Assembly (NCBI GenBank): GCA_947184155.2
Contig: CAMXCT020000247.1
Span: 880,170 to 944,169 of the forward strand
DNA from: Cladocopium goreaui
Taxonomy: Eukaryota; Sar; Dinophyceae; Suessiales; Symbiodiniaceae
Length of the DNA: 64,000 nt
Reading direction: 5' to 3'
Part shown: one piece after another, positions 28,403 to 57,718 of the stretch
Layout: the number at the start of each line of letters is the position of its first letter
Position numbering within the stretch: position 1 is the stretch's first letter
Position numbers and translations under genes: made by a program
Notes under the pieces: model-generated
What the model was told of the DNA's origin: nothing
Database searches by the model: none
What the model saw: only the letters and a program-made list of their open reading frames with translations

Positions 28403-28433
28403 CTTACATAGTCCCGTTTTTTATAACTAGTTA
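28403..28433 (+). repeat. Left terminal inverted repeat of element 1
   Basis: Identical over 31 bp to the reverse complement of 42848-42878. It begins CTTACATAGTCCCG, then six T, then ATAACTAGTTA. Confidence 0.9.
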
Positions 28434-28650
28434 GCAGAATTAGCTAGTTACTAACTAATTATAAAACAGTTATAAGTCTTTATAAGGTGTTATAACTCAC
28501 TATAACATAACTTAACTAGTTATAAAGTATGCTAAGTAGTTAAGATTTTTATCTTAATTAATAATTTTAACTAACTTTTAACTAACTAACATAACTCTTG
28601 CTAATTAACTTAATTTTTAGCCAGAGTTAGCTAGAGTTAGCTATTTTTTT
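28434..28650. promoter_or_regulatory. Left subterminal repeat domain (likely transposase-binding)
   Basis: AT-rich domain packed with TAGCTAGTTACTAAC, TTATAACTCAC, AACTAACTAAC, ATAACTCTTGCTAA and GAGTTAGCTAGAGTTAGC. The right end (about 42780-42847) has the same words in inverse orientation (GAGTTAGCAAGAGTTATAAC, AACATAACTCTACATAA). Arrays like this next to the ends of CACTA-type elements bind transposase; that role is inferred here. Confidence 0.6.
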
Positions 28651-28794
28651 TCTCTTTGTATATTCTTATTTAAAAACATATAGTAAATGCTTTGCATTTC
28701 ATGAAAAAATGTGATTTTTATGTACATTCATTGCCTTGGTGGCATTGCATCAATGTGGTTTTGCTTGTTTGGTAAGGTTCCATCAGGTGCCTGA

Positions 28795-29397
28795 ATGGGA
28801 ATACATCCACCATGGTTCAAATTGCAACAACATGTAGCCATTGGACCAGATACAAACGACATGAAGGTAGACATCCAAAGGGTTTGCACCATCAGTTGCA
28901 ATGATGGCAAAGCTATTCCAGTGCCTGCCACCTTGCTGCAAGAACATGGTGGTCGCCTGTGGCTGAAGCTCAGACCCACTTCCCAACCCATTAACCAAAT
29001 GGTGTATGGCAAAGTGGACAAGAATGCTTCCTTTTCCAACCATCCAAAGTTCCAAGACTTCATTGCCAAGAGGAACCAAGTATGGGCCAAAGAAGAAACA
29101 GAGGACCAAGTGTGGGATGCTGCCAATGAAGATGAACCAAAGCCATCAGCCAAGAAGAGAAAGAGGTAGGATCCAGAAGTGGTGTCAGTTCCCCTGGCTG
29201 GAGTGGCCATCTCTTGCTTGATGCAAGGCCAAAGGCCAACCAAAAGTGATGTGGTTGTGCCACTGGAAGCAAGCCAGTTGGAACCCATTTTTGAACTTTT
29301 GCAGGAAGATGCAGACCAACTGAAAGCCAGGAAACCTTACCAGAGAAAGGTTCAAAAGGAGCAAAAGCAACCAGAAGAAGCAGCTCCCAATATGTGA
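28795..29397 (+). CDS. Element 1 protein of unknown function, interrupted by an in-frame TAG
   Basis: The frame runs 124 codons from MGIHPPWFKLQQ to KKRKR, meets TAG at 29167-29169, and continues in the same frame for 75 codons (DPEVVSVPLAGVAIS to EEAAPNM). The basic KKRKR stretch could be a nuclear localisation signal. The coding feel (Lys/Glu-rich, CCA and AAG codons) continues past the stop, so either a nonsense change or a small intron splits the gene. No domain was recognised. It is the first gene after the left end. A hairpin repeat copy lies just upstream (28740) and two lie downstream (29491, 29520). Confidence 0.5.
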
Positions 29398-29706
29398 CAA
29401 TTTTGAAGGCCAAGTGCAAGCCAATGGCTCAGTTGGAAAAAGATCACTTGCAAGTGCTTGCCACCATGGCATTATACATTCAGTGCCTGGTGGCATTGCA
29501 TCAAGTGAAGCAGCCAATATGGCATTGCATCATGATGAATTGAGCACCAAATGAAGCACATCCATTTTGGCATGTGGTTGCACATTGCTTGGTGTGCCAT
29601 TGCTTCATGGATTCTTGAAGCCAAGGAAAGCCACAAGCATGACAGGTAAGACAAAAACTAGTGCAACAGAATCCAGGTACCAAGGTTTGCACCACATAAG
29701 TCAGCC

Positions 29707-30607
29707 ATGGCTGCTGCCCTTGCCAAAGACATGGTTGACCCACAGTGTGTTAAGGCCATCAATGCCTTGCTTGCAAGCAAGCTACCTGTCAACCAGCAGG
29801 TGGACCAAATGGTAGCTAGTTTCAAAAAATATGGCTTGGCTTACACATGCACAGTCAACCCAAGTGAAATCCTTTGCCATCCCCACAACAGAGCCAACCA
29901 AATGTTGTCCTGGGTGGACATGTGGGACAAAGGCACCAAGATGTTGAGCATTGGGATGAAGAAGCAATTCTTGGGAGAATCCATTGCCATAGAGATCAGC
30001 ACTGACAGTACCACCAGAAAGGAGCAGCTGGAGGCCAACCAGAAGCTGATCCAGGAATCCACAGGGGCCATGGCACCCATGAATGGCACAGAACGTTTCT
30101 TTGGCAGCATTTATGTTTTGGTTCTGAAATTAAAATTGCTGTTTTGTTTCAACATGCACCAGCCCAGGCTTTCTGAGCTTGTCCACAAGCCACACCACAG
30201 CTTTCTTGAGGGCCATCAACCATGGGTGTCTCCCAGAAGGGCAACCAGCTTTGGAGCTCCAAAAAGGTGACACGTGTTGGGAACTCATCCAAGATGGGTG
30301 GCCATGGCTGATTCTGAGCCATTTGGTGGAGAAGCAGTGGCCAATGCTTCCCAGCATTATCCAAGGGGCTTTGAACTCAGCCAATGCCATTGCCAAAGCA
30401 GCCAATGAATTGGAATTGGCAGCTATGGTGGCCCACTTGTTTTCCCAAGGCATTGGATTGGATGAAGCCAAGCGGAGGATCCAGGCAACCACCACTGTTT
30501 TACCTGAACAGTTGACCACTCTTTCCCACTTTGTGAAGACATTCTTTGGTGGTGACACTTTCCCCTTGTTGGCTTTCCTCCAGAACTTCAGTTTCTTGGA
30601 ACATTAA
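29707..30607 (+). CDS. Element 1 unknown protein, two coding segments
   Basis: First segment starts MAAALAKDMVDPQCVK and runs to about 30110 (NGTERFFGS). The second, in another frame, runs from about 30163 (after TTTCAACATGCACCAG, acceptor-like) to the stop at 30607 and contains FLRAINHGCLPEGQP and NSANAIAKAANELELAAMV. The frame change implies a small intron of roughly 50 bp or a frameshift; the donor was not identified. The protein looks helical and soluble. No family recognised. Confidence 0.5.
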
Positions 30608-30707
30608 ATGCTGTAGCATTGCCATATATGGCATTCCACCAATTTCTGTGCAGAGTTGTTGAATTGTTTTTTGTTTTTGAAACTAAGGTAGGAACTTCAA
30701 CATTCAG

Positions 30708-31230
30708 CTCCAAGTGGGCCAAGACTTGTTGGAGGCCATCACCTACACCAATTTCAAAGTTCATGGGCAAGTTTTTCCATTGGTGAGGGTTGCCATGTGG
30801 TGTGCTATGCTCACCACCAACAAACATCAATCAGGAATCCAAAAGCTTTTGGTGAAAAATGACATTGATAAACTGAAAGGTCCATGTTCCATGGACAAGT
30901 TGAAACAGAGTGAGGAGCTGCTCAAAGCCAGCTGGTCCATTGTGACACAGCACTCAGATTCCCACCACAGCTACAAATGCTTTGGCAGGCTTTGCACCAG
31001 GTGCATTTTGTATTTGGTAGGCAAGCAGAAGTTTTCCAGGGAGTCCAAGGTGTTTGAAACTTTGGAGAGCATGGTGGAGCTTTTCACCCAGGAGATGTCC
31101 AACACAACAATGCAGCAGGCACAGCAGCCAAAGGAAGACCAGAAGCCAATGGATGTTTTGCATGCCAATCCTCGACAAGTGGCTTTGCTCCAAAATGGTC
31201 ACATTAAACTGGGTCAGCAGCACCTGGGTT
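30708..31230 (+). CDS. Element 1 coding segment, helical protein
   Basis: An acceptor-like AACATTCAG (ending 30707) is followed by a long frame reading LQVGQDLLEAITYTNF, then LVKNDIDKLKGPCSMDKLK, ESKVFETLESMVELFTQEM and GHIKLGQQHLGF. After about 31225 the frame enters a spacer with a hairpin copy (31254-31266), so a donor (GGGTTTTATT) probably lies there. It may be a further exon of the preceding gene. Function unknown. Confidence 0.5.
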
Positions 31231-31321
31231 TTATTAAGTGTTCCCCAGCCTGGTGGCATTGCATCAATGACTTCAGCATACATGCTGTTCTGGCAATACT
31301 TGTTTTTGACCAAGGTACCAA

Positions 31322-32059
31322 ATGCAAAAAGATTACCCTGGCATGGTCTTTGCCTGCACTTCCATGAGTGACACCACCATCACCATGGTGCACAAACCTC
31401 CTTTGGAACAGGAGATCCAAGTTGATGTGCCATTTGCAGACCTTGGCAAATGGAAGGTGACCAGGTGCCACATGGCCAAAGTTTGCCCAGCTCCCACTGT
31501 GGAGCCATTGCTTCCACAGAATGTGCCTTATTGCCAGGAGGAGCGCTTGAGGCTGCAAGCCACTTTGGCCTTGCATGAAGCCCATGACAAGCACCAAGTG
31601 AACCATTTGCAAGTTGCCTTTGTGACCAGCCCCACAGGCTTGTACACATTGCAGCCTTTGAAAAAGGCCAAGGTGCTGAAGCTGGTTCCCATTGGCAATG
31701 TTTCCAAAGCCAAGGAATCACCACCCAAGGGTGCTATCTTGATGGACTTTGGTGGATTGACCTGGCAAATCCAAGGTTGGAAGCAATTCCAAAGTTTTGA
31801 GGATGCCAGTCCCAAGCCCAATGATACATTGGTGCCATACTTTTGGTGTAAAGCAACCAAGGAGGACTCCAACATGGAGTTTGGCCACGTGAACCTGTCC
31901 ACCAACTATGGCACACTGAAGGTCCCAGTTCTCACCAATTCCAAAGCTGTGGAAGCCAACCAGGTTCTCTTGTACCAGAAGGTCGATGATGACACCACTG
32001 AAGCCACTGAGACCACTGAGGGAGCCACACCTAGCAAGAAGAAGAAAGCCAAGAAATAA
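31322..32059 (+). CDS. Element 1 unknown protein, 245 residues
   Basis: Frame from MQKDYPGMVFACTSMSD to a lysine-rich tail (TPSKKKKAKK). The middle has beta-rich stretches (ILMDFGGLTWQIQGW, TLVPYFWCKATKEDS, NYGTLKVPVL) and a Gln/His/Lys helix (RLRLQATLALHEAHDK). An acceptor-like CCAAG precedes the ATG, so an upstream exon may join here. The basic tail suggests nuclear or DNA-binding protein. No recognised domain. Two hairpin copies with compensatory stem changes follow at 32101 and 32141. Confidence 0.55.
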   Translation: MQKDYPGMVFACTSMSDTTITMVHKPPLEQEIQVDVPFADLGKWKVTRCHMAKVCPAPTVEPLLPQNVPYCQEERLRLQATLALHEAHDKHQVNHLQVAFVTSPTGLYTLQPLKKAKVLKLVPIGNVSKAKESPPKGAILMDFGGLTWQIQGWKQFQSFEDASPKPNDTLVPYFWCKATKEDSNMEFGHVNLSTNYGTLKVPVLTNSKAVEANQVLLYQKVDDDTTEATETTEGATPSKKKKAKK

Positions 32060-32975
32060 ACACTCACCACCAGAGGTTGAAAAGAAACAAAAGTGTCATA
32101 TGCTTTGTAGCATTGCATCAGGTGCTGTTGGGAACCACCAGCTACATAGCATTGCATCAAGCAAGGCCCTGTGGCATTCCAACTCAAATTTGTTCACTTG
32201 ATTCTTGTTGCCATTCTAGCATTAAATCCATGATTTCACATGGTCCAGCCATGAGATGTGCACAAGCTTGATCTAAGTATATAATGGGTTGCAGTTACAG
32301 CCCAAAGACCCATGAGGGCCATGCAAGGTGTTTCCTTGCAACCTCCAAGGCTTGGAATCTAGCTCTTCACCACCATTTGCCAATGATGGTGAAGAGCTAG
32401 GTGCCCTGCCATGGGGAGGTTGAGTGGGGAGGGGTGGGGGTGTCCAAGCTTTCCTTTCATGGACCTTGGACCAGGCACCAAAGGGGCATTGCACCAAGGA
32501 TTGCACATGTGGATCTGCCAAACACCTCATGGGGGTCAGATGCAATTCATGCCAGTGCTTTGCCATTAGCAAGACAACATGAAGGTGCACACCTGCCTGC
32601 TGTTTTCCATGGCATGGCTTTGGCCTTTATCCATTCAAGGCAATGAGAAGATGCACCACTATCCAATATCTTGGCTGGTTGTGCAGCTTCTGGTTTCCCA
32701 AGCTTGTTGCCAACTTGATAATGAACAAGTAACACTCATGTTGTGGCTGAAAAAATGATCTTGCAGTTGCTGCATTGAACTTTTGTGTAGTGGTAGTGCT
32801 GGTGCTTAGGTATTGCAAGGAATGCTATTTAGAAGGTGCCATGGCATGTGCTGGTTGCCATATTGGCATTGTAAACATGCATTGGCAATTGTGGCATCCA
32901 GATGTCTAGCAGCCATAATGGCATTACATCAGCAAGCGAAAGTCTAGCAGCCATAATGGTATTACATCACCAAGT
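32060..32975. other. Element 1 spacer with hairpin copies
   Basis: No supported gene. It contains hairpin repeats at 32101-32120, 32141-32159 and two related copies (about 32918 and 32954), and an inverted repeat AGCTCTTCACCA...TGGTGAAGAGCT at about 32360-32400. Confidence 0.5.
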
Positions 32976-32977
32976 GA

Positions 32978-33420
32978 AAGACTTTAGCATGCCACCACCA
33001 TGCCATGGGGGGCTGACCTGTAAAACTTGCAGCTGTGCTTCCAAAGGGTCATTGCCACACTGGACAGCATTTCTTTGCTTCCAAGCCATGGGCCAAGGTT
33101 TGTCTGCACCACCAGCCTCTGCTGAAGCTGCCATGGTGACAACAGGCAATGTGGATCCAGCCACTGGAAAGTACTTTGCCAATGGACCATGGCAACCAGG
33201 GCCTCCCTCCATAGTTGACCTTTGCCATTTCATTCCAGGTGATCCATTTTGGTGGAGTGTCCACTGCAGCACCCCAGGGTGCCAAAGCTGGTTGTGGGTG
33301 GAGAAGACCAGACTCCCACAGTTCCAGCAGTGCACCCAGTGCCAGCAACCCTGGATCCAGAGCTTCCTTACCAATGGGGCAAACAAATGGCATGATGGCC
33401 CACCTGATGACCAGCAGTAG
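32978..33420 (+). CDS. Element 1 zinc-ribbon protein 1
   Basis: Open frame from about MPPPCHGGLTCKTCSC to NKWHDGPPDDQQ. An acceptor-like GAAAGACTTTAG precedes it. Near the C-terminus is CSTPGCQSWLW...CTQCQQPW, a C-x4-C...C-x2-C arrangement followed by PW, as in a small zinc ribbon. A second Cys group (CKTCSC) is near the N-terminus. The ribbon is clearly related to the one in the gene at 33966 (C-x4-C, SW, C-x2-C, PW). The likely role is DNA or protein binding; inferred only from cysteine spacing. A weak internal splice possibility exists at CATTTCATTCCAG (near 33238). Confidence 0.55.
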
Positions 33421-33960
33421 CCATGACCAGCAAATGGTGCCAAAAGGCATGCCAATATGGAGGGAAAGAAAGAATGGCTGAACCAGCAGTATGTTCTTTC
33501 CATGCACTTGGTTATCTAATGTTGGAAGCATTGATAATATAGTTGTTTTTTAAAATAAACATTTGCTTTATATGGAATTTGTTTACCAAGACCATGGTAC
33601 ACTCAGATCATATGATCAAATTATGGTATTGCCATATTGCAAGAATTATTGTTATGTATGTATATATATATATATATTTGTAGCCTTTAATGGCAGTGCA
33701 TCAATGTTCATGTCACCCCAACATGGTTGCCACTAGTGGCATTACATCAAATAATTATCTTTGTTCCCATAAACTCATTAGAACACGTTTTCCACATACA
33801 TATGCCACCATGGCATTACATCAATTTTACCATGTGTGTTTGGTTTGCCTGTTTGTGGCATTGCATCATTTCTTTGCATTCAAGCTTGGTGATTTTTTTT
33901 TGGGGGGCAGCCATTTGTCTCCAAGGTTGCCATAGCTTCCCAAGACTCCAAGCCAATTGC
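33421..33960. other. Element 1 spacer
   Basis: AT-rich with a TA tract near 33660 and hairpin repeat copies at about 33690, 33737, 33810 and 33855. No gene supported. Confidence 0.5.
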
Positions 33961-33965
33961 TCACC

Positions 33966-34322
33966 ATGGCCAAGGTGTCCAAGCCCATGAAGGTTTCCAT
34001 GAAGGCCACCAAGAAGGTGCCAGCCATGAACTCCCAAGAGACCATGCCAGATGAGTCCAAGGGGTTGTACCACGCAGTGCTCCATTGCACCAAGCCCAAG
34101 TGCCCATCTTGGATCTTCATGAGGAAGTTCCATGGTGGCCATTGTGTGGTTTGCCACACACCATGGAGCCAGAGCTACCCAAAGGGTGCCATGTGGTGGT
34201 CAGATGTGACCAAAACCACCAAGAAGAAGGCCACCAAGCCACTTCCAAACGACCAGAAGCCCAAGAAGGCCATGAAGGCCATGAAGGCCATGAAGGCCCA
34301 CAAGACCATGAAGGCCAAGTGA
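33966..34322 (+). CDS. Element 1 zinc-ribbon protein 2 with lysine-rich tail
   Basis: Frame of 118 residues starting MAKVSKPMKVSMKATKK. It contains HCTKPKCPSWIF...GGHCVVCHTPW, with the same C-x4-C, SW, C-x2-C, PW pattern as the preceding gene, so the two are paralogous domains. The C-terminus is strongly basic and repetitive (MKAMKAMKAHKTMKAK), which suggests nucleic-acid binding. The local GCCATGAAG repeat may vary in copy number. Start chosen at the first ATG, which follows a run without other ATGs. Confidence 0.6.
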   Translation: MAKVSKPMKVSMKATKKVPAMNSQETMPDESKGLYHAVLHCTKPKCPSWIFMRKFHGGHCVVCHTPWSQSYPKGAMWWSDVTKTTKKKATKPLPNDQKPKKAMKAMKAMKAHKTMKAK

Positions 34323-34329
34323 GGGGGAG

Positions 34330-34750
34330 GCCACAACCATGGACCAACTCTTCCAGATGCTGATGGAAAGAAAGCTGCTTGACCACCATTGCCATTGTGG
34401 CATTCCATCAGTTGCATTTATGTCCATACCACTTACTTTTGCCATGGCCATTGTGGCCTTACATCAATGTGGATTTTTGTTTTTTTTTGCCATTATGGCA
34501 TTGCATCAGATGTTTTTTTCTTGGGAAACAGGCCCTTAGCAGCCTGCCACCATGGCATTGCATCATTTCCATGAATATTAGTTTCAATAAGGGCAACCCA
34601 TATACTACAATCTATTTTTCAATATATTTGGTTAGGTTTGATTGTAAATCCATTATCTTCAAGTAAATGTTGTTGCCAATAGTTTACACCTGCTTTTATT
34701 GCAGCCAGATTGTCCAGAGTTTCCATTGAATCCATTCCCACTTGGACTAT
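34330..34750. other. Element 1 spacer with four hairpin copies
   Basis: Hairpin repeats at about 34390-34412, 34450-34468, 34488-34508 and 34545-34565. No supported gene. An acceptor-like TTTTATTGCAG lies at about 34692-34703, so a 5' UTR exon may begin here for the next gene. Confidence 0.45.
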
Positions 34751-34760
34751 TGGGTGAGCC

Positions 34761-35153
34761 ATGGTCAACATTTCCATTGATGACTATACCATCAGTGAAG
34801 GACCATTGGGACGCCACTTGGTGCTTTTCTTCAATGATGGCACCAGCCAAAGGTAACTTGGATGTCATGGCAAGTAATCCATGGATTTCATTGCATGCAA
34901 CATCCAAACCACCATAGGGTTTCCATAGTTGAAATGGTGGCTAAGGTACCCAGTGCCTGCTCCCAATCCAGAAGGGTCCATGAGGACCAAATGGACACTG
35001 GTGACCAATATCAATGGAGAGAAGATCCAGCATAGGGTCCACCAAGCTCCAGGCCATGCACTCCAGATGATTGAGGTGGAGTACTTGGCCAAGCTCATCC
35101 ATGGGAAGCCCATTGAGGAGACCACTGCATTGGTCCACCATTGGTTCAATTGA
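34761..35153 (+). CDS. Element 1 small spliced gene, about 100 residues
   Basis: Exon 1 (34761-34852) reads MVNISIDDYTISEGP then HLVLFFNDGTSQ and ends AG|GTAACTTG. Exon 2 (34946-35153) starts after GTGGCTAAG and reads YPVPAPNPEG, TLVTNINGEKIQHRVHQ and EVEYLAKLIHGKPIEE. Both sides are phase 2, so the 93 bp intron removes the stop that otherwise follows exon 1. Beta-rich; no family recognised. It is the clearest small intron in the left half of the element. Confidence 0.6.
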
Positions 35154-35199
35154 AACCATGTTGGATTTCCAGACAAGAGCGTTGAGGTATAAAAAAAAA

Positions 35200-35680
35200 C
35201 ATCTGCGTTGATTTTTTTTGCCATCAATGGCATTGCATCAATATTGGTATATATATATATAATGTGTATATATGGTAATTAAAACTATTTCCTTTTGATT
35301 GTCAGTGATGACATCCAAGAACTTGCCAGTGATGGCATTACATCAGACATACCATAACTACATGTTGCCATATATGGCATTGCATCAGATATAGCATAAC
35401 TAAATGTTGCCATATATGGCATTGCATCAATGTGTGTGTTTTTGTTTTTTTTGGTGTGGTTTGATTTGCCATTCATGGCATTGCATCCATTTATTTTGTT
35501 TCATGGTTGTCATTCATGGCAGTTCAAGGAAATATTTTGTTATGATTTCACTATGGTTTTGCATATTCATGATTGTGAAATTGGTTCATACATGGTTGCA
35601 ATTTGGCTTACCAACATTATTTTTTCCATTGCATGTACAAGCATGCTCAGCGATCAATAATATATAGTATAGCATTAGAA
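35200..35680. other. Element 1 spacer with clustered hairpins
   Basis: Five hairpin copies, including two identical ones (35365-35387 and 35407-35429, TTGCCATATATGGCATTGCATCA in two parts: TTGCCATATATGGCA then TTGCATCA), plus about 35217-35239, 35325-35347 and 35467-35488. No coding sequence. Confidence 0.6.
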
Positions 35681-35684
35681 AAAC

Positions 35685-35876
35685 AGTTAAGTTCAGAATT
35701 CTGAACTTAACTCCAAAATTTCCAGAGTTAGGTTCAGAATTCTGAACCTAACTTCCAAATTTCCAAAGTTAAGTTCAGAATTCTGAACTTAACTCCAAAA
35801 TTTCCAGAGTTAGGTTCAGAATTCTGAACCTAACTTCCAAATTTCCAAAGTTAAGTTCAGAATTCTGAACTTAATT
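35685..35876. repeat. Five 28 bp palindromes at exact 41 bp period
   Basis: Palindromes start at 35685, 35726, 35767, 35808 and 35849. Units 1, 3 and 5 have arms AGTTAAGTTCAGAA/TTCTGAACTTAACT; units 2 and 4 have AGTTAGGTTCAGAA/TTCTGAACCTAACT. The A/G change is matched on the opposite arm. Linkers of 13 bp (CCAAAATTTCCAG or TCCAAATTTCCAA) separate them. The last unit has one mismatch. It lies in the AT-rich centre of element 1 between genes. Confidence 0.9.
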
Positions 35877-35879
35877 CAA

Positions 35880-36125
35880 AAGGTTCAACATAAGTTCAGA
35901 ATTATGAATTTATAATTTTGATTCTTTTGAGATTATATCTTGTGAAATCATTTACAAATAATTTTATTAGTCTGGAATAATTCATGGTTGATTCAGCTAT
36001 GTTTGTTCTCAAATAATTATTTATATTTCAGCATATATAAATTTATATATAGAGTTTAACAATATTACTACTAAATATAAATATATATACACAATTATTT
36101 TATTTACCAATTCGACCACAATCTC
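35880..36125. other. AT-rich spacer
   Basis: Very AT-rich with no gene. It lies just before the ATG of the next gene and could hold its promoter. Confidence 0.4.
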
Positions 36126-36133
36126 CCATAGCC

Positions 36134-37337
36134 ATGGCTTCTTCCCATGATGCTGTCACCAGGTCATTTTTGACCACAGGAAACACCATAGAGAACCAAC
36201 ATATCAGGGAAGGATGGGAGAGGCAAACCATGGCCATGTTTGACAGGCCACCAGAGCCAGATGCAGATGCCTTTATTGCCACAGTAGAAAGAGCCATGAT
36301 GGCAGACAACGACCATAGGGACAGGACTGGAGACCATAGTTGGGAAACCAACCAGATGGAAGCAAAGATTTGGCCAGTGCCCAGACCATGGAGGCCCAGT
36401 GGTACCAGGACCAGGATGAACACATGGAAATTCCAGATGATGCCTCCAGCACATGGGACAGGTATTGGGACCACTACCCAAGACCATTCTCCAATACACC
36501 ATGGAGAGGTGGAGCAAATGTGCCAGATGCCACTTCCACAGCAGCATCTCCTTTGGGAACTACCACTGCTCCCAAAGCATCTGCCATGACCAGTGGTGCT
36601 TCTGCCACACCTGCCAGGTCTACAGCAGCAAACCCAAAGGCCAAGTCCCAGCCTGCTAGCACCCATGCCACTGGTTGGAGAGCCAAGCTGGTTTGGCTGG
36701 TTGCCAAGTACCAGCTGGGTGATTGTGATGGCATCCAGCAATTGATGGATGCCATGAGGTCAGAAATCCAGGGTGGCACCAAAGGTCACCAGTCCTGGAA
36801 GTACAAGGCCCAAAAGTGGTTCCAGTACTGGGACCAAGGCTGGTGGCAGGACCTGGAGCAGCTCCAAGAATGGTATCTAAGCAGCACCTTATTCAAGACC
36901 ATCTAATGAATTGTGGCCAGCATTTGAATGTCATTGATACCAATAATGATCCCATACTTTCAAGCATGCATTGCTTTGTTTCATTGTTTATGTATCTCTT
37001 GGCTTGGCAATCTTCAAAGAAATTGCATCAATTCTCAAAAGCATACATGTTCCCACTTCTTTGCAGCATTGTACAAATATATATTTGCTACACATTTCTG
37101 GTGCCACACATGGCCTTACATCAAAATACATAAGTTTGTTTGTTTTCTTTTGCCATTTGTGGCATTGCATCAAAATGTTGTCTTGCATTTGCAGGAAGGC
37201 AACAATTCCATTGTAAGCTGGCACAAGCACTTGCCAGGTGGTGCAGAGAACCACATTTCCAAGCTGCTCTGGACAAACACAAGAGGGACCTCCAAGCCCA
37301 AGGCTACAGCTCAAACCAGCCCGATTGGGCCAGATAG
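36134..37337 (+). CDS. Element 1 three-exon gene, Trp-rich helical protein
   Basis: Exon 1 (36134-36283) starts MASSHDAVTRSFLTTGN and ends ADAFIAT|GTAGAA. Exon 2 (36340-36872) follows CCATAG and reads LGNQPDGSKDLASAQ, WDRYWDHYPRPFSNTPW, an Ala/Thr/Ser-rich linker, then WRAKLVWLVAKYQLGD, QKWFQYWDQGWWQ and ends TG|GTATCT. Exon 3 (37199-37337) follows GCAGGAAG and reads QQFHCKLAQALARWCREPHF to QPDWAR and stop. Phases match at both junctions (0/0 and 2/2). The first intron would be only 56 bp, so a frameshift is an alternative there. The second intron carries two hairpin copies. No family recognised. A Ser/Thr/Ala linker joins two helical parts. Confidence 0.55.
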
Positions 37338-37960
37338 TTTCACCAGACTGCAGAGCCATATGCTGCCCAGCCAAAAGTATTTTGCCAAGTCATACCTTCA
37401 GCCTAGTGGCAGTACATCAACCAACTAATGACCATTTGCTTCACACTTTCAATATAGAAGCTTAGCCTTTGTGGCATTGCATCACCTTGTTTACAATCAC
37501 AAAATGTTGCCATATATTAGTTTGTAATGTTTAGTGTTTGCATATAAATTATCAACACCAAGACAATCTATACCATCAAGTAGCTTTGGTTGGTTGAAGC
37601 CTCAGTGGCATTGCATCAACATTGCCTTGATGGCATTGCATCAACATTGCCTTGATGGCATTGCATCAAGCAGATTAGCATGTTCATTCATAAAAGTTCA
37701 AATTCCATTTCTTTATTGATTATGTTTGCTCATTATTGTAAATATACTTCAGACATTCCATGTGCATTTAATTATGCACTGTGTCACAGAACAGCTGGAA
37801 TTAGCATTCAGCTTTATCCTTTGCATTTGTTTTCCACAAATGTGGCAGGTACACATGAGGTGTGACAATCTTTCCACTCCAAGTGCAACACTACAATCAC
37901 TAATTGTTTTCCTTTTGGCTGCCAGCTTTGACATCATAGTTTCCACTTGACCAGTGCCTG
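37338..37960. other. Element 1 spacer with hairpin copies
   Basis: Hairpin repeats at about 37399, 37465, 37600, 37622 and 37646; the last three are nearly tandem. No gene supported. An acceptor-like TTTTGGCTGCCAG lies at about 37912-37924. Confidence 0.55.
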
Positions 37961-37966
37961 AGCCAG

Positions 37967-38689
37967 ATGACCAACCTTTGGAAAGTTGCAGACTTTGTTT
38001 CTGAGGTCCAGCATTTGGACAAATTGCTGCAAGCACAGCCAAATGGCCAGCTGGGCCAAAGTATGACCACCAGTTTGTGTACCAAGCTCCAAGCTTCCAA
38101 GAATTGGACCAGCTCTGCCATTTTGACTTTGATCCAGGCACTTGAACAAAGCACATTGCCTCAGAACAATAAGGAGACCATCCAAGGTGCAATCAACAGC
38201 TTGGAAGGCCAGAACCAAGGACACTTGAAGACAGTGTTGCAGGGCCAGATGATTGTTTCCTTCTGCCAATACATTTCCAAATTGGATTGGGAGAAACTGG
38301 AAGCTTCACCCAGCAACACCACAGATACCATGTCCATTTTGGCCAAAAGGCTGAAATGTATGGGTGTGGTTTCCATGAAGGAAAATACCAAAAAGCAAGC
38401 CATGGCTGTTATCTTGTACCTGCTGGTGCACAAAGGTGGCAAGCCCATGCCCATGCCTGTGACCAAGCATTCCATGATGTCAGAATTTGCTGCCATCTTT
38501 TCAGCTACTCCTCAAGGCAGAGCACCAAGCTTAGCAAGGTACCCAGAAGACCCCAGGGACTGTGGACCAGAGTGGTGCCAACTGGCTTACCCAGCAGATG
38601 AACCAGCTATGATGACCATCAGCCCTGCATGGAATAGCTTTGTATCTAAACTGCATTCAAGGATCACATTCAAACCCAGATGTTGTTAA
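37967..38689 (+). CDS. Element 1 helical protein conserved in element 2
   Basis: Frame of 240 residues starting MTNLWKVADFVSEVQHLDKLL. It is largely alpha-helical and ends after SLARYPEDPRDCGPEW in a divergent tail. The minus-strand frame at 54838-55443 is its homologue: NTTDTMSILAKRLKCMGVV corresponds to NTVDATRMLIKRIKVCGLK, ENTKK to EDTKK, and SLARYPEDPRDCG to GLARYPPSPHDIG. In both copies it lies directly before the zinc-knuckle/transposase gene. It may be the first exon of that gene; the copies diverge right after the RYP motif, where an intron could start. No known domain recognised; it may be a partner or N-terminal part of the transposase. Confidence 0.65.
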   Translation: MTNLWKVADFVSEVQHLDKLLQAQPNGQLGQSMTTSLCTKLQASKNWTSSAILTLIQALEQSTLPQNNKETIQGAINSLEGQNQGHLKTVLQGQMIVSFCQYISKLDWEKLEASPSNTTDTMSILAKRLKCMGVVSMKENTKKQAMAVILYLLVHKGGKPMPMPVTKHSMMSEFAAIFSATPQGRAPSLARYPEDPRDCGPEWCQLAYPADEPAMMTISPAWNSFVSKLHSRITFKPRCC

Positions 38690-38698
38690 CCATTAACC

Positions 38699-41600
38699 AT
38701 GCTTTTGTCAGCTGCTATGTCTACCAAGGTAATTTGCAGAGATTCCAACAAGGAAGTGAGGAAGAACATAGGTGCTTCCAGTTCCATCTCTGGCAGCAGC
38801 TCTGCCCAGGAACCAGCCAAGTCCAGTGACCAGATTGTTTTGGGCATGTTGAGCCAATTGCTGGATCGTTTTGTCCCTCAATCCCAACAAACCCAAAACT
38901 TGGACAAACTTGCTTGCAAGCAGCCAGCTTCTGTGAACCACAGCTCTGGCAACCAGCAGGGCCAGGGCTTGGAAGAGAATAAGGAAGCCACAGCTTCCCA
39001 TGGTGCTTCTCCATTGCCTCTTCAAGACACTCCAGCAGAACAGGCTGGCAAAGTTATTGTATCACATTGTTCTGCACTGCAGAGCATGCTTGTTGCCAAG
39101 TGGCATTACATCACAAGTCAGCCATTTATGGCATTACATTATTTTTCTGTTTTTTGCACAGCTAGCCTATCCCAACACATTCCTGTCCATGTCAGGCAAA
39201 AGCCACTGAAGGCAGTGCCTTGGCCCAGTATGAAGAGCAAGCATTTGCAAATTTGTCAAAGACAAAGGCAGAAGCCAAGGGCAAGGCCACCAGTGCCCCC
39301 AAGGCCAAAGCAAAGGCCCAGGCCAAAGCAAGTGCCAAAGCCACAGCCAAAGGCAAGGCTTCTGCCCAGAAGCAAATTCTGAAAAGACCAGCTACCAGAG
39401 TTCAGTTGACCAAACCCTTGGCCAACCCAGAGCAGAATGGCCACTACACCTACCCAGGACCAGCTGGACCATTTGGTTGTATCAGGTGCCGAGGAAACAT
39501 TAAAGGCTGTGATAACTGTGTCCAGCCCACTTTTGAAGGTTTGAGATTCAATTCCAGAGCCAATTGGGTTGCTTGGAAACTAGCCAAGGATGGCCACCTG
39601 TAAGGTTGAACCATCAGCAGTTGGCCAAGCCATTTGTTGGGGAAGCAAAGACATTTGCATGGTGTACAAATGTGCTTGGCTGTGTGCCAAGGAACCAGAC
39701 CAGCCACTGACAATTGGCCAGCCACCAGGAAAAAGTTTACATGTGTTTTCTCAGGAATGCACCACTTGTTCACATGGCCTTCCATGGCTTTGCATCATGA
39801 TTTTGTACCTCTTGCTTGCTTTGCCTGTATGGGCCACTTTGGCATTGAAAGGCATGCAGAACTGCATGCTCTTTTTTTTTACATTAGGCCAATTTTTTGG
39901 CATTGCAAAGGAACTCTTACCAATTGACTTTCAAACAGTATATTGCCAATTCTTTTGCAGACAAAGGCTCCAACCAAGCAATATAGCTGAAGAGAATCAT
40001 AAAGTGATCCAAAGTTTTATACTACATGCTTACAACCCAGAATTGTGTGAATATTAAGTATACATCAAGCACAAGCAAAGCAAATTAGTAACAGCACAAT
40101 ATCATAAAGACTTTAGCTTTACAAGCAATGAGATGGCCACCATGAATAACATGCAACATTTTAGCTTCTTCTTGGCAGTGTGCCAGCTATGGCCTCTTCT
40201 TCCAGGCCACAGAAGTTGGCCAAGTTGCAGAACTTCAAAGCCAGCTTGCCACATCGCAGCCAAGCCAGCTTACATGCAATGGTCCAGGAAGCCAATAAAA
40301 CAGGCTTGCCTGAAGTCAGCTCTGGCAAGCACCAAAGACAAGCCAGAAGAGAGCTTCTGGCCTCATGTGATGGTGGTGCCTTAGGTCCATTGATTCAATC
40401 AGAAAATGCCCAAGATGCCCAAGGTAAGCCAGTGCAGGTGTCCTTCACTAATCTCCTCACCTACCTTGTTGCTTTGTTTGCCAGGGGTGGATCATTCCAC
40501 CAGCTTGTGAAGAAGCAGCATCAGCTCCACCCAAGTTCACCAGCCAGACCATGGCAAATGATTTTGTATTTAGATGAGCTGATACCTGGCAATGTGCTTG
40601 GTAGAGCAGAGAGAAAATCTTGGGCATGGTATGCTTCCTTTTTTGAAATGGGGCCACACCTTAGCAGCACAGATGCCTGGCTGACTCTAGCCATTGTCAG
40701 AAGCAATGTCATGTCCACCTTGGAAGCAGGTGTCAGCCAAGTCACTGCCATGCTGTTGAAAAACATATTTTGCAGACCCATAAGCCACCCCCAAGGTGGT
40801 TTGCTACTGAAGCACCATGAAGGTGATATCAGACTCCATTTCACTTTATCCAGTGTTTTGGCAGATGGAGCTGCCCAGAAGCAAGTGTGGGGAAGCAAGG
40901 GGGACAGTGGCATCAAGTTTTGCTTTTTGTGTGCCAACATCAGGGCCAGTGGCACCACACAAGAGAACATGCATGAGAATACTAGAAAGTATGACCAGCT
41001 AGTATTGACCACAAATGGCCAAGTTTTAGAATCATATGCTCAACTGCATGCTAGAAAAGCCATTTGCACCAAAGCCAACTTTGAGCTTTGGGAAAAGGCC
41101 ACAGGCTGGACCTACAGCCCCTTGGCTTTGATGTTGGATGACCAATTGAAAGCCATGAAGTTACTGCAGCCTTGCTCCCAATTTACTCATGATTACATGC
41201 ATGGTGTCTTGCAAGGCACAGGCCCCATTGCATTGTTTCATTTTTTGTGTGCCATGGACACAGAATTGCAGGTATGGCAATTTTTGGAAGGTTACTTTAA
41301 GCACTGGACTTTCCCAAAGCAGTGGAAAAGCCAGCATGTGGGCACATATTTTTCCAAGAAAAAAATGGTTAGCCACAAAAACAACCAAAAATTTTCTTGC
41401 CAAGCTTCAGAGCTGCTAGCAATCTTTCCAGTGGTTCGACATTTTGTCCATGCTGTGTGTATGCCAAGGGGTCTTTGCTTGCCAGCTAGCCAAGCATTCC
41501 TTGCAATGGCAGCAGTCATTGACCAAGTTCATGATGGAAACCAAGCTGGTGTCATCAGCAGAAATACTCTGCTGCCAGCCATAGAGACATCCATAGAAGG

Positions 41601-42339
41601 TTTCCACACAGCATTCCCTGCCATACCTTTGATAAAAAAATGGCATTGGCAACTGCACTTGCCAGATGCCCATGCCAGATTTGGAAAATTACCAGGTTGC
41701 TTTGCCAATGAGAGAAAGCACAAGCCCATTGGTGCCATGGCAACTTTGCTGCACAACCAGAAAAATTTTGAAAAAAACTTGCTGGAGCAGGTTCTGGCAC
41801 AAGAAATGTGCACCTTGGACACACCAGATCTGTTCCAAGATGGTGTGTTCCTAGTGAACCCAATAAAAGCTTCCAAGAAGACATTGCAGACTCTCTCCAG
41901 CATGCTTGGTGAAGCCATGCCCCATGCTCTCACTAGCCAGCAGGCAAGTGTGAACCACACTGCTTGCCACAAAGGTGATGTTGTTATTTACCAAGCAGGC
42001 AGCACTCTTGGCATTGCAGAGGTGCAACTCCATTTGCTTTTGAATGGTGTAGTGACCACTCTGGTCCAGCCTTGGCAAGTGAAAGAATGGTTTCCAAACC
42101 AGCAATATGCATTGTGTACCATCGACACCGACCCAGGATTTGTCACCACTGCCAGCATCTTGACAGCTGTGATTTGCCATAAAGGTCATCCAGAAGCCAA
42201 AGTGCTTCTGCCATACCCATTTGCATCAAACTATTGGCTTAAACATGTACCAAAAAAAAATACCCAGCTGCTGCCAATTTTGGCATTGCATCATCAGCTT
42301 GGTTTAGCACATTGGCCCCACATGGCAATTAGCATTTGA
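38699..42339 (+). CDS. Spliced DDE transposase, EnSpm/CACTA-KDZ-like
   Basis: Three exons: 38699-39052, 39196-39599, 40179-42339. Intron 1 (GTTATTG...CATGTCAG, phase 0) and intron 2 (GTAAGG...TTGGCAG, phase 2) restore one frame; the retained stop after GHL disappears. Exon 1 is a Ser/Gln-rich linker. Exon 2 has an Ala/Lys-rich stretch and a zinc knuckle (GCIRCRGNIKGCDNC). Exon 3 (719 codons) holds the RNase-H-like core. Counting from its first codon: D132 in LYLDELIPGN, D229 in VLADGAAQKQ, a C-x2-C at 248-251 (FCFLC), HDYMHG at 337-342 and E511 in FANERKHK after KWHWQLHLPDAHARFG. This order fits CACTA/Plavaka-type transposases. A C-terminal beta domain (HKGDVVIYQAGS) follows. Both introns contain hairpin copies or lie beside them. 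All frames are open, so it could be functional. The upstream exon at 37967 may also join. Confidence 0.75.
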
Positions 42340-42780
42340 CATGTTGCCTGATGTGGCATTGCATCATACAAGTGACAGGTCTTATGCTGTTTTTTAGTTT
42401 TTTAGTTGGGAGGCTATTGGAACATTTTGTTTTTGGAAGGCATTCTTTTGCAGCAATTGGTGTGATGTGCTGCATGTGTTGCTTACTCTTACTTTCCTTT
42501 TGCTACAAAATGCGGACTCATTCTTTTTTGAATAAACAGCTTGATTTCAAATGATTCTTGATACTTATTTGGTTTCATTCTTTGTTACACAATGCTCATA
42601 TTGAATTACATACTTTCTTTTTGAACATACCATGACATTCATCCTGGACAATTGTCCCATATATATGGCTCAATGTTTCTCTTTGAAAATTAAAGCTTTG
42701 GTAGCCTCTTGATGCCAGCAAACCTTTTTTTCCTTGAAGTGGAAAGCGTTTTTTCTTACATTCAAAACAACACAAAAACA
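42340..42780. other. Element 1 3' region
   Basis: One hairpin copy at 42345-42366, then AT-rich sequence without a gene, leading into the right subterminal repeats. A AATAAA occurs at 42530, but its role in dinoflagellates is unclear. Confidence 0.45.
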
Positions 42781-42847
42781 GAGTTAGCAAGAGTTATAAC
42801 TAGTTAGCTAACTCAACATAACTCTACATAATTAACATAACTCTACA

Positions 42848-42878
42848 TAACTAGTTATAAAAAACGGGACTATGTAAG
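42848..42878 (-). repeat. Right terminal inverted repeat of element 1
   Basis: Ends CGGGACTATGTAAG. Perfect 31 bp reverse complement of the left end. The CA at 42879-42880 matches the CA at 28401-28402. Confidence 0.9.
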
Positions 42879-47299: not shown

Positions 47300-48715
47300 C
47301 GGAACGTTCCCCCAAAAAAATGGTGAAACAAGGCGATTTGACCATGAAAAATGGCGATTTAACCATGATTTAACGATCAACAGATCAAGAGATCAGCAAT
47401 TTCACCAGGCAAAAGGGTCATTTGAAGAACAAACGATGGGGGAAAATCCTTGGATTTAAGCAACGAAACTTGTGCATACTTTGGGATCAACCAGCCATGA
47501 GATGACCACTATCATGGTTGCTTAAGCGTCCTTGTAGAATGGTTACTTGATGGCTCGATGGTGATGCTACAGGAATGTTAAGCGTTGACAGATTGGAACA
47601 TATTGGGACCTCTAGCTCATCTATTTATAATGCTTGTTCATTTGGATTTAACTGGCTGTATGGGAATATAATGGCATGGACTGAGGATATGATGAGAATA
47701 CCATGCAATACATATATGTCACCAAAAATGCGGGATACTTCATGAGATATAGTAGGGATATCCATGAATTTGGGAGTTTAGGATATTAGGGGATTTTGGG
47801 GCGGTAAATTGAGCAAACGCGAGGTAAAATGCACCCACGACAAAAGGACCCTGAAAATTGTGGATATCAGCATTTGTCCAACCACGAGGTATACCCCAGA
47901 ATTGCCATTACAATAAGAATCATTTTGATAAGCAGATAAGCATCGGAAAAACAACAACATTTGGGGTACCTTACCTTGAAACAGACCCATATTTGACCAA
48001 GCACATTGAGACCTTTGTTCAATCAGCAAAGAAATGGATCGTATGGACACTTGAGCCGGGATCAATACACTGCAACAGTTCTGGATTCTGTGCAGGGGTA
48101 GCTCACCCTGGTTCATTGGCTGGCTTACAAACACTAGGATTTCGCTTGCGCGAGGTCCTTATTGAGGGGGTTTTGGACGTGGCTCATCAAAGAACGGCAA
48201 ATTCTACCCTTTGCCAGTTGGTTTAACTCAGACCCAGATCTTCTGGTTCTTTCTCCCGTGATGTTGTCCCGTGGAATGTCCCACAATGTGGGCACCCCCA
48301 GTAAAAAGTTGCTTATGACCCCAAATGACCCCAATACTATAGCTCTAATTACCATGACCCGTAGCAAAATTGGACTTCTAACCCCACCCAACTTGGCTAT
48401 CTATGGGGGGCCCACATCCATCTTCGATCTCTAGGTGAAACCCATGGATCCGAGCGGCACGAGGATTGTCCCAGAACTTGACACATCTCTGAGGACAACT
48501 TGTTGCCACTCGCGGCGGTCACAAAACCTGGGTGTTTTTTTCGCGTGGAAAAACATGGCTGGCACAAGCTCATAGAGTTTGTTGACAAAGTCATGTTCAA
48601 CACCCCAAGCACATGATATTCATGATACGAGTACTCTGTATATATATATATATATATGATCGAGAGACCTTTAGGTACCATTTTGTTCCGGTTAATTCTG
48701 ATAATTTTTAGAGCC
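47300..48715. other. Unassigned sequence
   Basis: Moderate GC, no tandem repeats apart from a TA tract at about 48635-48660. A 122-residue plus frame (47858-48226) has no recognised motif and a shadow on the other strand; I do not call it a gene. Confidence 0.35.
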
Positions 48716-48717
48716 TT

Positions 48718-51235
48718 TTGGATAATTGAGAGGATTTGAAGAATTAAATGATTTAATCCTTTTAATCCTTTTAATCCTCCAGAGCCTTTTGGGGGATTAA
48801 AAGGATTAAAAGGACTAAATGATTTAATCCTTTTAATCCTTTTAATCCTCCAGAGCTTTTTGGAGGATTAAAAGGATTAAAAGGATTAGATGATTTAATC
48901 CTTTTAATCCTTTAATCCTCCAGAGCCTTTTGGAGGATTAAAAGGATTAAAAGGATTAAATGATTTAATCCTTTTAATCCTTTTAATCCTCCAGAGTCCT
49001 TTGGGGGATTAAAAGGATTAAAAGGATTAAATGATTTAATCCTTTTAATCCTTTAAATCTCCAAGTCCTTTGGGGGGATTAAAAAATAAAAGGAAGTAAA
49101 AATGATTAAATTAATCCTTTAATCTTTTAAAAAAAAATCCTTTTAAATATCTCCTCCAGGGGGTCTGGATTTCCCGGCCCAAAAGCCCTTGAAAATATAT
49201 TTACAATCCTTTAATCTTTTAAAATCCTCCAGAGAGACCTTTTGGGGATTAAAAGGATTAAAAGGATTAATGATTTAATATCCTTTTAATCCTTTAATCC
49301 TCCAGATGAGGCCTTTTGGAGGATTAAAAGGATTAAAGGATTTAAAGAATTAAATTGCTGGGGTGCTATTTTCTTGGATTCTGGAGGGTCTGGAGGATTA
49401 AAAGGATTAAAAGGATTAGATGATTTAATCCTTTTAATCCTTTAATCCTCCAGAGCCTTTTGGAGGATTAAAAGGATTAAAAGGATTAAATGATTTAATC
49501 CTTTTAATCCTTTTAATCCTCCAGAGTCCTTTGGGGGATTAAAAGGATTAAAAGGATTAAATGATTTAATCCTTTTAATCCTTTAAATCCTTTTAATCCT
49601 TCAGGGGGTCCGGAATTCCCGGCCCAAGCCCTTGAGAAATATATTTAAATCCATTTAATATAATAAAACCCCAAAAAATAAAAAAAAATCCTTTTAAATC
49701 AAATCCCTCCAGAGCCTTTTGGGGGATTAAAAGGATTAAAAGGATTAAATGATTTAATCCTTTTAATCCTTTTAATCCTCCAGAGCCTTTTGGAGGATTA
49801 AAAGGATTAAAAGGTTTTAAAGAATTAAATTGCTGGGCTTTTCTTGGGATTCTGGGAGGTCTGGAGGATTAAAAGGATTAAAAGGATTAAAAGGATTAAA
49901 TCATTTAATCCTTTTAATCCTCCAGAGCCTTTTGGGGGATTAAAAGGATTAAAAGGATTAAATCATTTAATCCTTTTAATCCTTTTAATCCTCCAGGGGG
50001 TCCGGAATTCCCGGCCCAAGCCCTTGAGAAATATATTTAAATCCATTTAATCCTTTTAATCCTCCAGAGCCTTTTGGGGGATTAAAAGGATTAAAAGGAT
50101 TTAAAGAATTAAATTGCTGGGCTTTTCTTGGGATTCTGGGAGGTCTGGAGGATTAAAAGGATTAAAAGGATTAAAAGGATTAAATCATTTAATCCGTTTA
50201 ATCCTTTTAAATCTTTAAGCCTCCAGGGGGTCCCCCCGTAATTCCGCCCAAGCCTTGAGAAATATATTTAAATCCATGTAATAATTTACTCCAGCCAGAG
50301 GAGGAGAGGCCTTTGGAGGATCAAAAGGATTAAAAGATTTAAAATAAATTGCTTGGGCTTTTCTTGGGATTCTGGGAGGTCTGGAGGATTAAAAGGATTA
50401 AAGGATTAAAAGGATGAAACGGATTAAATCATTTTAATCCTTTTAATCTCCAGAGCCTTTTGGGGGATTAAAAAGATTAAAAGATTAAATGATTTAAAAA
50501 TCTTGTTAAATCCTTTGAAAATCCTCCAGATCCTTTGTGGGAGGAATTAAAAAGGATTAAAAGGATTAATTATTTAATTATCCTTTTAAAATCCCTGGCA
50601 GAAGTCCTTGGGGATAAAAGGATTACAGGATTAAATGAATTTAAAATCCTTTTAATCCTTTTTAATCGCTTTTTAATCCTCCAGAGCCTTTGGAGATGAC
50701 AAGGATTTAAAAGGATTAAATGATTTTATCCTTTTAATCCTTTTCATCCTTTTTAATCCGCCATGGTCCGATTCCGGGCCCAAGCCCTTGAGAAATATAT
50801 TTAAATCCATTTAGTCCTTTTAATCCTCCAGAGCCTTTTGGGGGATTAAAAGGATTAAAAGGATTTAAAGAATTAAATTGCTGGGCTTTTCTTGGGATTC
50901 TGGGAGGTCTGGAGGATTAAAAGGATTAAAAGGATTAAATGGTTTAATCCGTTTAATCCTTTTAATCCTCCAGAGCCCTTTAGGGGATTAAAAGGATTAG
51001 AAGGGTTAAATGATTTAATCCGTTTAATCCTTTTAATCCTTTTAATCCTTTTAATCCTCCAGGGGGTCCGGAATTCCCGGTCCAAAAGGATTAAAAGGAT
51101 TTAAAGAATTAAATTGCTGGGCTTTTCTTGGGATTCTGGGAGGTCTGGAGGATTAAAAGGATCAAAAGGATTAAACGGTTTAAAAGGATTAAATGATTTA
51201 ATCCTTTTAATCCTTTTAATCCTCCAGAGCCTTTT
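48718..51235. repeat. 2.5 kb array of ATTAAAAGG palindromes
   Basis: Repeated blocks of GGATTAAAAGGATTAAAAGG, then ATGATTTAATCC, then CTTTTAATCCTTTTAATCC, separated by CTCCAGAGCCTTTTGG. Each block of about 70 bp is a near-perfect inverted repeat. A second-order unit containing GGGGTCCGGAATTCCCGG and CTTGAGAAATATATTTAAATCC recurs (49.1, 49.6, 50.0, 50.2, 50.8, 51.06 kb). Arg/Ile-Lys and Leu/Ile frames are artefacts. Confidence 0.9.
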
Positions 51236-55443: not shown

Positions 55444-55634
55444 GGTGATCAAAGGATCTAGGCTAAGGTGAGCCCACAATTCCTATGGGCCCACTGCAGC
55501 AGAAGCAGAAGAGAATTGATTCTGCTAACCTTCAAAGTTAGAATTATGACAGCTCCTTTGGGCATGGGATAAAGGAGTTTAAGCCTTTACATGAAAGCCC
55601 CTTTGGGCAGAAACAATTTAGTTTACAAAATAAA

Positions 55635-57662: not shown

Positions 57663-57718
57663 CGTGTGTCACCCGTCATTCGCAGTGGACACTTTCGCCA
57701 AAGCAAAGAAACAAGCTG

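What the first reader, a model, noticed from the sequence alone, without database searches (positions are those of the whole stretch)
28740..42366. A sense-only family of tiny hairpins with a fixed 3' tail fills the spacers and introns of a 14.5 kb transposon
About 30 copies of TGGCATTGCATCA occur between and inside genes of element 1, all on the gene strand, none seen outside it. Nearly every copy is preceded by TGCCA/GCC a few bases upstream, so the unit is a stem-loop (GCC-loop-GGC) followed by ATTGCATCA. Two copies (32101, 32141) have stems changed on both sides (GCT/AGC), which is covariation. A strand bias with structure points to an RNA-level role (processing, stability, splicing, or marking of element transcripts) rather than simple DNA binding. 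I know of no described equivalent in CACTA-like elements.
Basis: seen in the sequence. Interest (0 to 1): 0.9.

Follow-up and report, generated by a model that had tools for sequence, protein, structure and literature searches.

The report
Transposon's one-way hairpin-and-tail repeats
A 14.5-kb jumping element in a dinoflagellate alga carries about three dozen tiny hairpins, each with the same short tail, in its introns and gene spacers and nearly all on the gene strand; they look like a conserved signal in the element's RNA, although what reads the signal is unknown.

Summary
An element with perfect 31-bp terminal inverted repeats (28403-42878) holds 34 sense copies of GCC-N(4-7)-GGC-ATT(G/A)CATCA, all in introns or spacers as I drew them; 33 of 34 have a Watson-Crick stem, the last a G-U. 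Two qualifications: one antisense copy (29219-29239), and one weak sense match with a stem inside an exon (31566). No copy with a stem lies elsewhere in the window. Loops and flanks are random, stem and tail conserved. Of 45 stray exact 13-mers read elsewhere in the 1.17-Gb genome, 2 have a stem. Three further element copies show the same strand bias. DNA around the transposase of a relative (62% identical protein) has 14 sense and 1 antisense near-copies, with a drifted tail end; a 59% relative has 3 and 0; a 45% relative has none in 5.5 kb. The transposase folds like RAG1. Two stems (GCT/AGC) covary, but covariation is thin. Best reading: a cis-acting hairpin-plus-tail in primary transcripts, read by a protein or RNP while a multigene RNA is processed. 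RNA action is inferred; a DNA signal is not excluded.

The parts
28403..28433 (+). left terminal inverted repeat, 31 bp
   Evidence: 100% complementary to 42848-42878; 2-bp duplication CA at the ends, read by eye from the flanks printed
42848..42878 (-). right terminal inverted repeat, 31 bp
28733..28752 (+). hairpin-tail copy 1
29485..29503 (+). copy 2
29513..29532 (+). copy 3
30621..30641 (+). copy 4, intron-like interval of gene 2
   Evidence: relative P0052 compatible by eye but not significant
31248..31266 (+). copy 5, intron-like interval of gene 2
   Evidence: relative P0051
32102..32120 (+). copy 6, covarying stem GCT/AGC
32141..32159 (+). copy 7, covarying stem GCT/AGC
32912..32931 (+). 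copy 8
32950..32969 (+). copy 9, G-U in stem; Watson-Crick in the C353 copy
33683..33703 (+). copy 10
33729..33749 (+). copy 11
33804..33823 (+). copy 12
33847..33868 (+). copy 13
34391..34410 (+). copy 14
34447..34466 (+). copy 15
34489..34508 (+). copy 16
34546..34565 (+). copy 17
35220..35240 (+). copy 18
35325..35345 (+). copy 19
35367..35387 (+). copy 20
35409..35429 (+). copy 21
35468..35488 (+). copy 22
37103..37123 (+). copy 23
37152..37172 (+). copy 24
37401..37419 (+). copy 25
37465..37484 (+). copy 26
37599..37618 (+). copy 27 (25-bp tandem with 28, 29)
37624..37643 (+). copy 28
37649..37668 (+). copy 29
39095..39113 (+). copy 30, intron-like interval
39121..39141 (+). copy 31, intron-like interval
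39777..39797 (+). copy 32, upstream of transposase
   Evidence: relatives P0036 and C1902
42273..42293 (+). copy 33, 3' of transposase
   Evidence: relatives P0004, P0027
42346..42366 (+). copy 34, 3' of transposase
29219..29239 (-). the one antisense copy, loop 3, in a coding-like ORF
31556..31578 (+). weak sense match with stem inside an exon of gene 2; 7.2 bits; left out of the 34
30690..32059 (+). homology-supported exons of gene 2 around the intron at about 31222-31331 (splice sites assigned by eye)
40189..42241 (+). transposase, RAG1/RAG-like fold

Best explanation
The copies are a real, selected cis-acting element of this transposon family. SHOWN: a 3-5 bp stem with free loop sequence and loop length 4-7, a purine-T before the 3' stem, a fixed tail ATTRCATCA (in one 62% relative only ATTRCA is fixed); strong orientation with the genes; near confinement to introns and spacers; retention in relatives about 60% identical. 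INFERRED: it acts in the element's primary transcripts, where a protein or RNP reads stem plus single-stranded tail, and helps to process a multigene RNA (removing introns and separating genes by splicing, trans-splicing or 3' end formation). Most likely each noncoding interval needs at least one copy and extra copies add strength. Who reads it, host or element protein, is unknown; the drift of the tail end between relatives would fit a reader that co-evolves with the element.
For: Stem in 33 of 34 kept copies, 34 of 37 by rule, against 9% and 16% in two local nulls and 2 of 45 stray exact 13-mers elsewhere in the genome. Loops 42-45% identical, tail 85-92%, flanks 25-32%. Core pair GCT/AGC in 2 copies; 85.6% of cells paired against 29-60% in slid controls. 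Sense/antisense with stem 34/1, 36/1, 10/1, 10/1 in four close element copies. 36 of 37 sense matches outside coding segments. All 13 noncoding intervals of 85 nt or more hold a copy, P 0.01-0.03 under random placement. Relatives as DNA, up to 3 mismatches with stem: C1902 (62%) 14 sense, 1 antisense, none inside the transposase, simulations mean 0.76, largest 2; C4101 (59%) 3 and 0, simulations mean 0.76, largest 4. Relatives as read-through proteins: 3 of 20 peptides exceed all 95 coding controls in sense; GGCATTRCAT-compatible sites 19 sense, 6 antisense, of which 13 and 0 lie in noncoding extensions (my count). C539 and C2136: 0 changes in 150 stem and tail positions against 1.7% in other noncoding DNA.
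Against: No RNA was seen. One antisense copy, kept in all four aligned element copies, and one in C1902. One weak sense copy in an exon. In 100-nt context 10 of 34 hairpins pair with probability 0.5 or more. Covariation rests on two core pairs. Between window and C353, tail changes (4 of 306) are as frequent as other noncoding changes (58 of 5839), although at all 5 differing stem or tail positions C353 has the consensus base. Two copies lie 3' of the last gene, where no splice acceptor is needed. The 45% relative C57 has 0 copies in 5.5 kb, and C4101 alone is within simulation range at 3 mismatches. 16 of 20 read-through peptides are not significant in sense; P0052 reaches 0.047 in antisense, and P0036 antisense (10.9, p 0.056) exceeds the antisense controls (largest 8.1).
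Confidence: 0.5

Rival explanations
1. A DNA signal: a binding site read by the transposase or an accessory protein, on double-stranded DNA or on a single strand as a hairpin (as REP hairpins are read), marking the element's own DNA.
For: CACTA elements carry many short repeats bound by an element protein, and soybean Tgmt* repeats form stem-loops (PMC2613891, passages). REP hairpins preceded by a conserved motif are processed as single strands by TnpAREP (PMC8266576, abstract). 5.7-kb deletion derivatives keep 10 sense copies. ATTGCATCA equals a known bZIP site (recalled).
Against: Outermost copies lie 337 and 512 bp inside the element ends, and other AT-rich repeats lie next to the ends (seen). 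Duplex-DNA sites need not be oriented; variable loop length and GCT/AGC covariation do not suit a duplex dyad. Near absence from coding and presence in each short intron-like interval are unexplained.
Confidence: 0.27
2. A neutral dispersed micro-repeat: copies arose by local tandem duplication or micro-transposition and survive only where coding constraint is absent.
For: Local tandem copies at 37606-37668, 35333-35429 and 32919-32969. Absence from coding would follow. Window-C353 tail changes are not rarer than other noncoding changes.
Against: Loops and flanks are randomised while stem and tail are kept; orientation bias; near-copies with stem and mostly sense orientation in a 62% relative. 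Odds lowered from 0.13 to 0.10 because.
Confidence: 0.1
3. A splicing signal of the host (branch region or intron-definition element) that the element uses in concentrated form.
For: All three intron-like intervals under 150 nt hold copies (P 0.075 under random placement); several copies lie shortly before a pyrimidine-rich stretch and AG (read by eye).
Against: No copy with stem outside the element in the window; 2 of 45 stray exact 13-mers elsewhere have a stem; copies 3' of the last gene.
Confidence: 0.1

Closest known systems
Subterminal repeats of CACTA elements (TNPA/TNP1 sites; soybean Tgmt*)
   Same: many short repeats in a TIR element, GC-rich plus AT-rich part, able to form stem-loops (PMC2613891, passages)
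   Different: here copies are internal, in introns and spacers, nearly all in one orientation; ends lack CACTA; different AT-rich repeats lie near the ends
Bacterial REP sequences with TnpAREP/RAYT
   Same: small hairpin plus conserved motif, high copy number, linked to a transposase (PMC8266576, abstract; titles in listing)
   Different: bacterial, dispersed over the host genome, HuH transposase; here a eukaryotic element with a RAG1-like transposase fold and copies confined to it as far as read
Nematode Ur element before SL2 trans-splice sites
   Same: stem-loop followed by a short fixed sequence between genes of one transcript (recalled; the term was not found in two papers checked)
   Different: other sequence; not known to me from introns or transposons (recalled)
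Introner elements of Amoebophrya
   Same: dinoflagellate-lineage introns with RNA hairpins (PMC7789003, passages)
   Different: their inverted repeats of 8-20 nt join the two intron ends; here a tiny internal hairpin plus tail that also fills spacers

Membership tests
CACTA subterminal repeats | located next to the TIRs | tested here: not met
   outermost copies are 337 bp from the left end and 512 bp from the right end of the element
CACTA subterminal repeats | CACTA at the ends | tested here: not met
   TIR begins CTTACATAGTCCCG
CACTA subterminal repeats | bound by an element-encoded DNA-binding protein | not testable with these tools
   no assay
CACTA superfamily transposase | recognised by a Pfam profile of that superfamily | tested here: not met
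   no such match in 19 members at E up to 1; fold nearest RAG1 (E 3e-7, TM 0.44 by query), BbRAGL 4e-5, Transib 5e-3
Introner | repeat spans the intron, with inverted and direct repeats at its ends | tested here: not met
   conserved part is about 20 nt, flanks random, and copies lie in spacers too
REP/REPIN | HuH transposase partner | tested here: not met
   the transposase model matches RAG1; other element proteins were not modelled
SL-related repeat | matches the dinoflagellate spliced leader | tested here: not met
Known RNA family | Rfam gathering score | tested here: not met
   0 matches in the window
Selected RNA hairpin | compensatory changes in the stem | tested here: inconclusive
   4 two-sided cells against 0.5 shuffled, 2 in the core, 1 shown to be a private change
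Selected RNA hairpin | one orientation in other family members | tested here: met
   C1902 14 to 1, C4101 3 to 0 at up to 3 mismatches; only 9.0 and 5.5 kb read; C57 has none

The most novel reading that the evidence does not exclude
The transposon family tags every intron and gene spacer of its own multigene transcript with a hairpin-plus-tail read by a dedicated RNP, so that a large foreign transcript is cut and spliced into separate mRNAs inside a dinoflagellate: an element-borne RNA-processing code whose tail drifts with its reader.
Probability: 0.28. Interest if true: 0.85.

Novelty: new variant of a known kind. Interest (0 to 1): 0.64.

Why it matters
Cis-signals for splicing and gene separation in dinoflagellates are poorly known: one paper on Amphidinium carterae states that trans-splice acceptors show no simple consensus beyond AG (PMC2488372, passages). 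An element that carries some 35 copies of one recognisable signal would make such signals testable. If it is instead a DNA signal, it would be an unusual internal, oriented recognition code of a transposon with a RAG1-like transposase.

Tried and rejected
Chance or composition: rejected. Larger hidden repeat around the copies: rejected, information ends at stem and tail. Spliced-leader relics: no match to the leader with up to 3 mismatches; 5 two-mismatch matches to a shorter piece, all outside the element. Rfam families: none. Stray 13-mers as other family members: of 100 places listed, 51 lie in four element copies, 4 in C1231 (no stems) and 45 are singletons; 2 of 45 have a GCC stem. One with a near-copy was read over 6 kb: no homology to the element or its proteins. 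Another (C154) proved a TTGCATTGCA repeat. One search counted 145 places; 45 were not listed and not read, and C2600 and C6060, which hold further close transposase copies, were not read. Relatives in IMG/VR and GTDB contigs: none; the hairpin pattern in IMG/VR gave 8 single matches, not studied. Interval and coding borders were drawn by me from ORFs, homology and codon scores and are approximate; gene 5 is doubtful. The list was chosen partly by eye; one search repeats the test by rule. Target duplications were read by eye.
Full report
What is there. The element spans 28403-42878 with perfect 31-bp inverted ends. Its last gene (40189-42241) has 45 database homologues; 3 of the 45 carry a name, all Symbiodiniaceae labels ('Symbiodinium sp. 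CCMP2592' twice, eukprot 'Skav' once, which I read as S. kawagutii), and one is 99% identical. The window lies in a 1.17-Gb assembly, which holds 65 scored matches to the transposase, 62 of 837 candidates having been scored. Pfam finds nothing in the transposase or among 19 aligned relatives beyond scattered single weak hits. The AlphaFold model (mean pLDDT 83.5) matches RAG1 at E 3e-7 (TM 0.44), BbRAGL at 4e-5 and Transib at 5e-3; separate matches at about 5e-3 to 2e-2 are to DNA methyltransferases and isolated BAH domains. Two-base repeats flank three of four copies (CA window, TG C353, TA C2136; C539 none; read by eye).

The repeats. 17 exact 13-mers, all sense, in this element only within the window. 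At up to 2 mismatches there are 37 in the element; by rule 34 of 37 have a Watson-Crick stem and 1 of 37 (31566, with a stem) is in a coding segment but scores only 7.2 bits. I dropped that one and two without stems by eye and used 34. Information lies only from about -9 to +12 around the 13-mer. Unit: GCC, 4-7 nt ending in purine-T (the T belongs to the search word), GGC, ATTRCATCA. 33 of the 34 have a Watson-Crick stem. Isolated RNA hairpins average -5.15 kcal/mol, but in 100-nt context 10 of 34 pair with probability 0.5 or more. A covariance model built from the 34 recovers them plus one antisense copy at 29219-29239 (23.1 bits); the next match has 14.9 bits.

Chance. Order-4 Markov simulations of the masked element give 0 to 0.1 such copies per 14.5 kb and strand. 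The best control is the genome: of 100 exact places listed (145 counted), 51 lie in four element copies, 4 in one array (C1231) without stems, 45 are singletons, and 2 of those 45 have GCC at loop 3-8, against 17 of 17 exact copies in the window.

Strand and place. Exact copies in the other elements all run with the element: C353 18 of 18, C539 8 of 8, C2136 8 of 8. With stems, sense/antisense: 34/1, 36/1, 10/1, 10/1; the antisense copy is one inherited site. C539 and C2136 are 5.7-kb deletion derivatives with shared breakpoints, so the four are not independent. All 13 noncoding intervals of at least 85 nt, as I drew them, hold a copy.

Selection. Loops of equal length are 42-45% identical, tails 85-92%, flanks 25-32%. 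Stem changes: two copies GCT/AGC; in all 4 two-sided cells against 0.5 in shuffles. Against this, the outer G-C pair at 34454 is private to the window copy, and the window differs from C353 at 5 of 510 stem and tail positions, each time with C353 at the consensus; that rate is not below other noncoding DNA (58 of 5839). C539 and C2136 show 0 of 150 changes against 1.7%.

Relatives as DNA. The protein search of the own genome was answered late, and only three stretches could be read. C1902 (62% identical transposase, 9.0 kb): 14 sense and 1 antisense matches with stem at up to 3 mismatches, none inside the transposase; 5 and 1 at up to 2; order-3 simulations give 0.76 (largest 2) and 0.12 (largest 1). 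Stem, loop length and TGGCATTRCA are kept, the last bases CATCA drift. C4101 (59%, 5.5 kb): 3 sense, 0 antisense at up to 3 (simulation mean 0.76, largest 4), 2 at up to 2 (mean 0.08, largest 1). C57 (45%, 5.5 kb): none. So the signal is shared within about 60% identity and was not found further out.

Relatives as proteins. Where predicted proteins run through introns or spacers, sense translations of the motif appear: P0036 upstream of its transposase, P0004 and P0027 downstream, P0051 in the intron matching 31222-31331. By codon degeneracy 4 of 20 peptides are significant in sense (P0036 and P0051 0.003, P0004 0.010, P0027 0.043) and 1 of 20 in antisense (P0052, 0.047); 3 exceed the best of 95 coding pieces in sense; P0036 also exceeds the antisense controls (10.9 against 8.1, p 0.056). 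By rule, GGCATTRCATCA-compatible sites in P0001-P0054: 5 sense (one in the window's own protein, three in near-identical copies, one in P0036), 0 antisense; for the 10-mer 19 sense and 6 antisense, of which I count 13 and 0 in noncoding extensions, 6 and 6 in coding parts. Eight of eight motif-like peptides allow GCC at the right distance, control 23-26%.

How it works. A stem-plus-tail signal, nearly all on one strand, kept in introns and spacers, fits recognition of RNA or single-stranded DNA. I favour RNA, because the strand is that of the genes and each noncoding interval has a copy; processing of a multigene transcript is the simplest role. This step is inference. A DNA-level mark of the element and a host splicing signal remain.

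Novelty. The 13-mer is in no paper of the held library. Seven further answered searches on related subjects listed no paper whose title or abstract start describes such repeats; beyond listings I saw passages of PMC2613891, PMC7789003, PMC2488372 and PMC5029490, the abstract of PMC8266576, and no matching passage in PMC1657053 and PMC3687364. On checking, the neutral rival was lowered from 0.13 to 0.10 and interest raised from 0.62 to 0.64, both because.

Noticed in passing
40189-42241: Dinoflagellate transposase family without a Pfam match whose predicted fold is closest to RAG1 and RAG-like proteins, with weaker matches to methyltransferase and BAH chains. At least 65 matches in the own genome, many with open frames. 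Worth its own study.
   Followed up: partly
L041 and L043-L044 (C539, C2136): Two 5.7-kb deletion derivatives of the element with the same internal deletion breakpoints. Their left flanks share some letters, so they may be one insertion in duplicated sequence; not settled. C6060 may be a third.
   Followed up: partly
35685-35912: Array of a 41-bp unit with GTTCAGAATTCTGAAC palindromes inside the element.
   Followed up: no
28417-28660 and 42780-42860: AT-rich repeats such as AACTAGTTA and AGAGTTAG next to both ends; these, not the hairpins, look like subterminal repeats (read; word counts).
   Followed up: no
48710-51200: Long arrays of 9-bp TTTAATCCT/AGGATTAAA units in both orientations.
   Followed up: no
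55542-61465: Long reading frames, one with a reverse transcriptase domain (RVT_1): a non-LTR-like retroelement.
   Followed up: no
10325-11448: 123-bp tandem repeats within an RCC1-like reading frame on the minus strand.
   Followed up: no
42215-42339: The end of the transposase reading frame differs from that of the 99% identical protein P0002.
   Followed up: no
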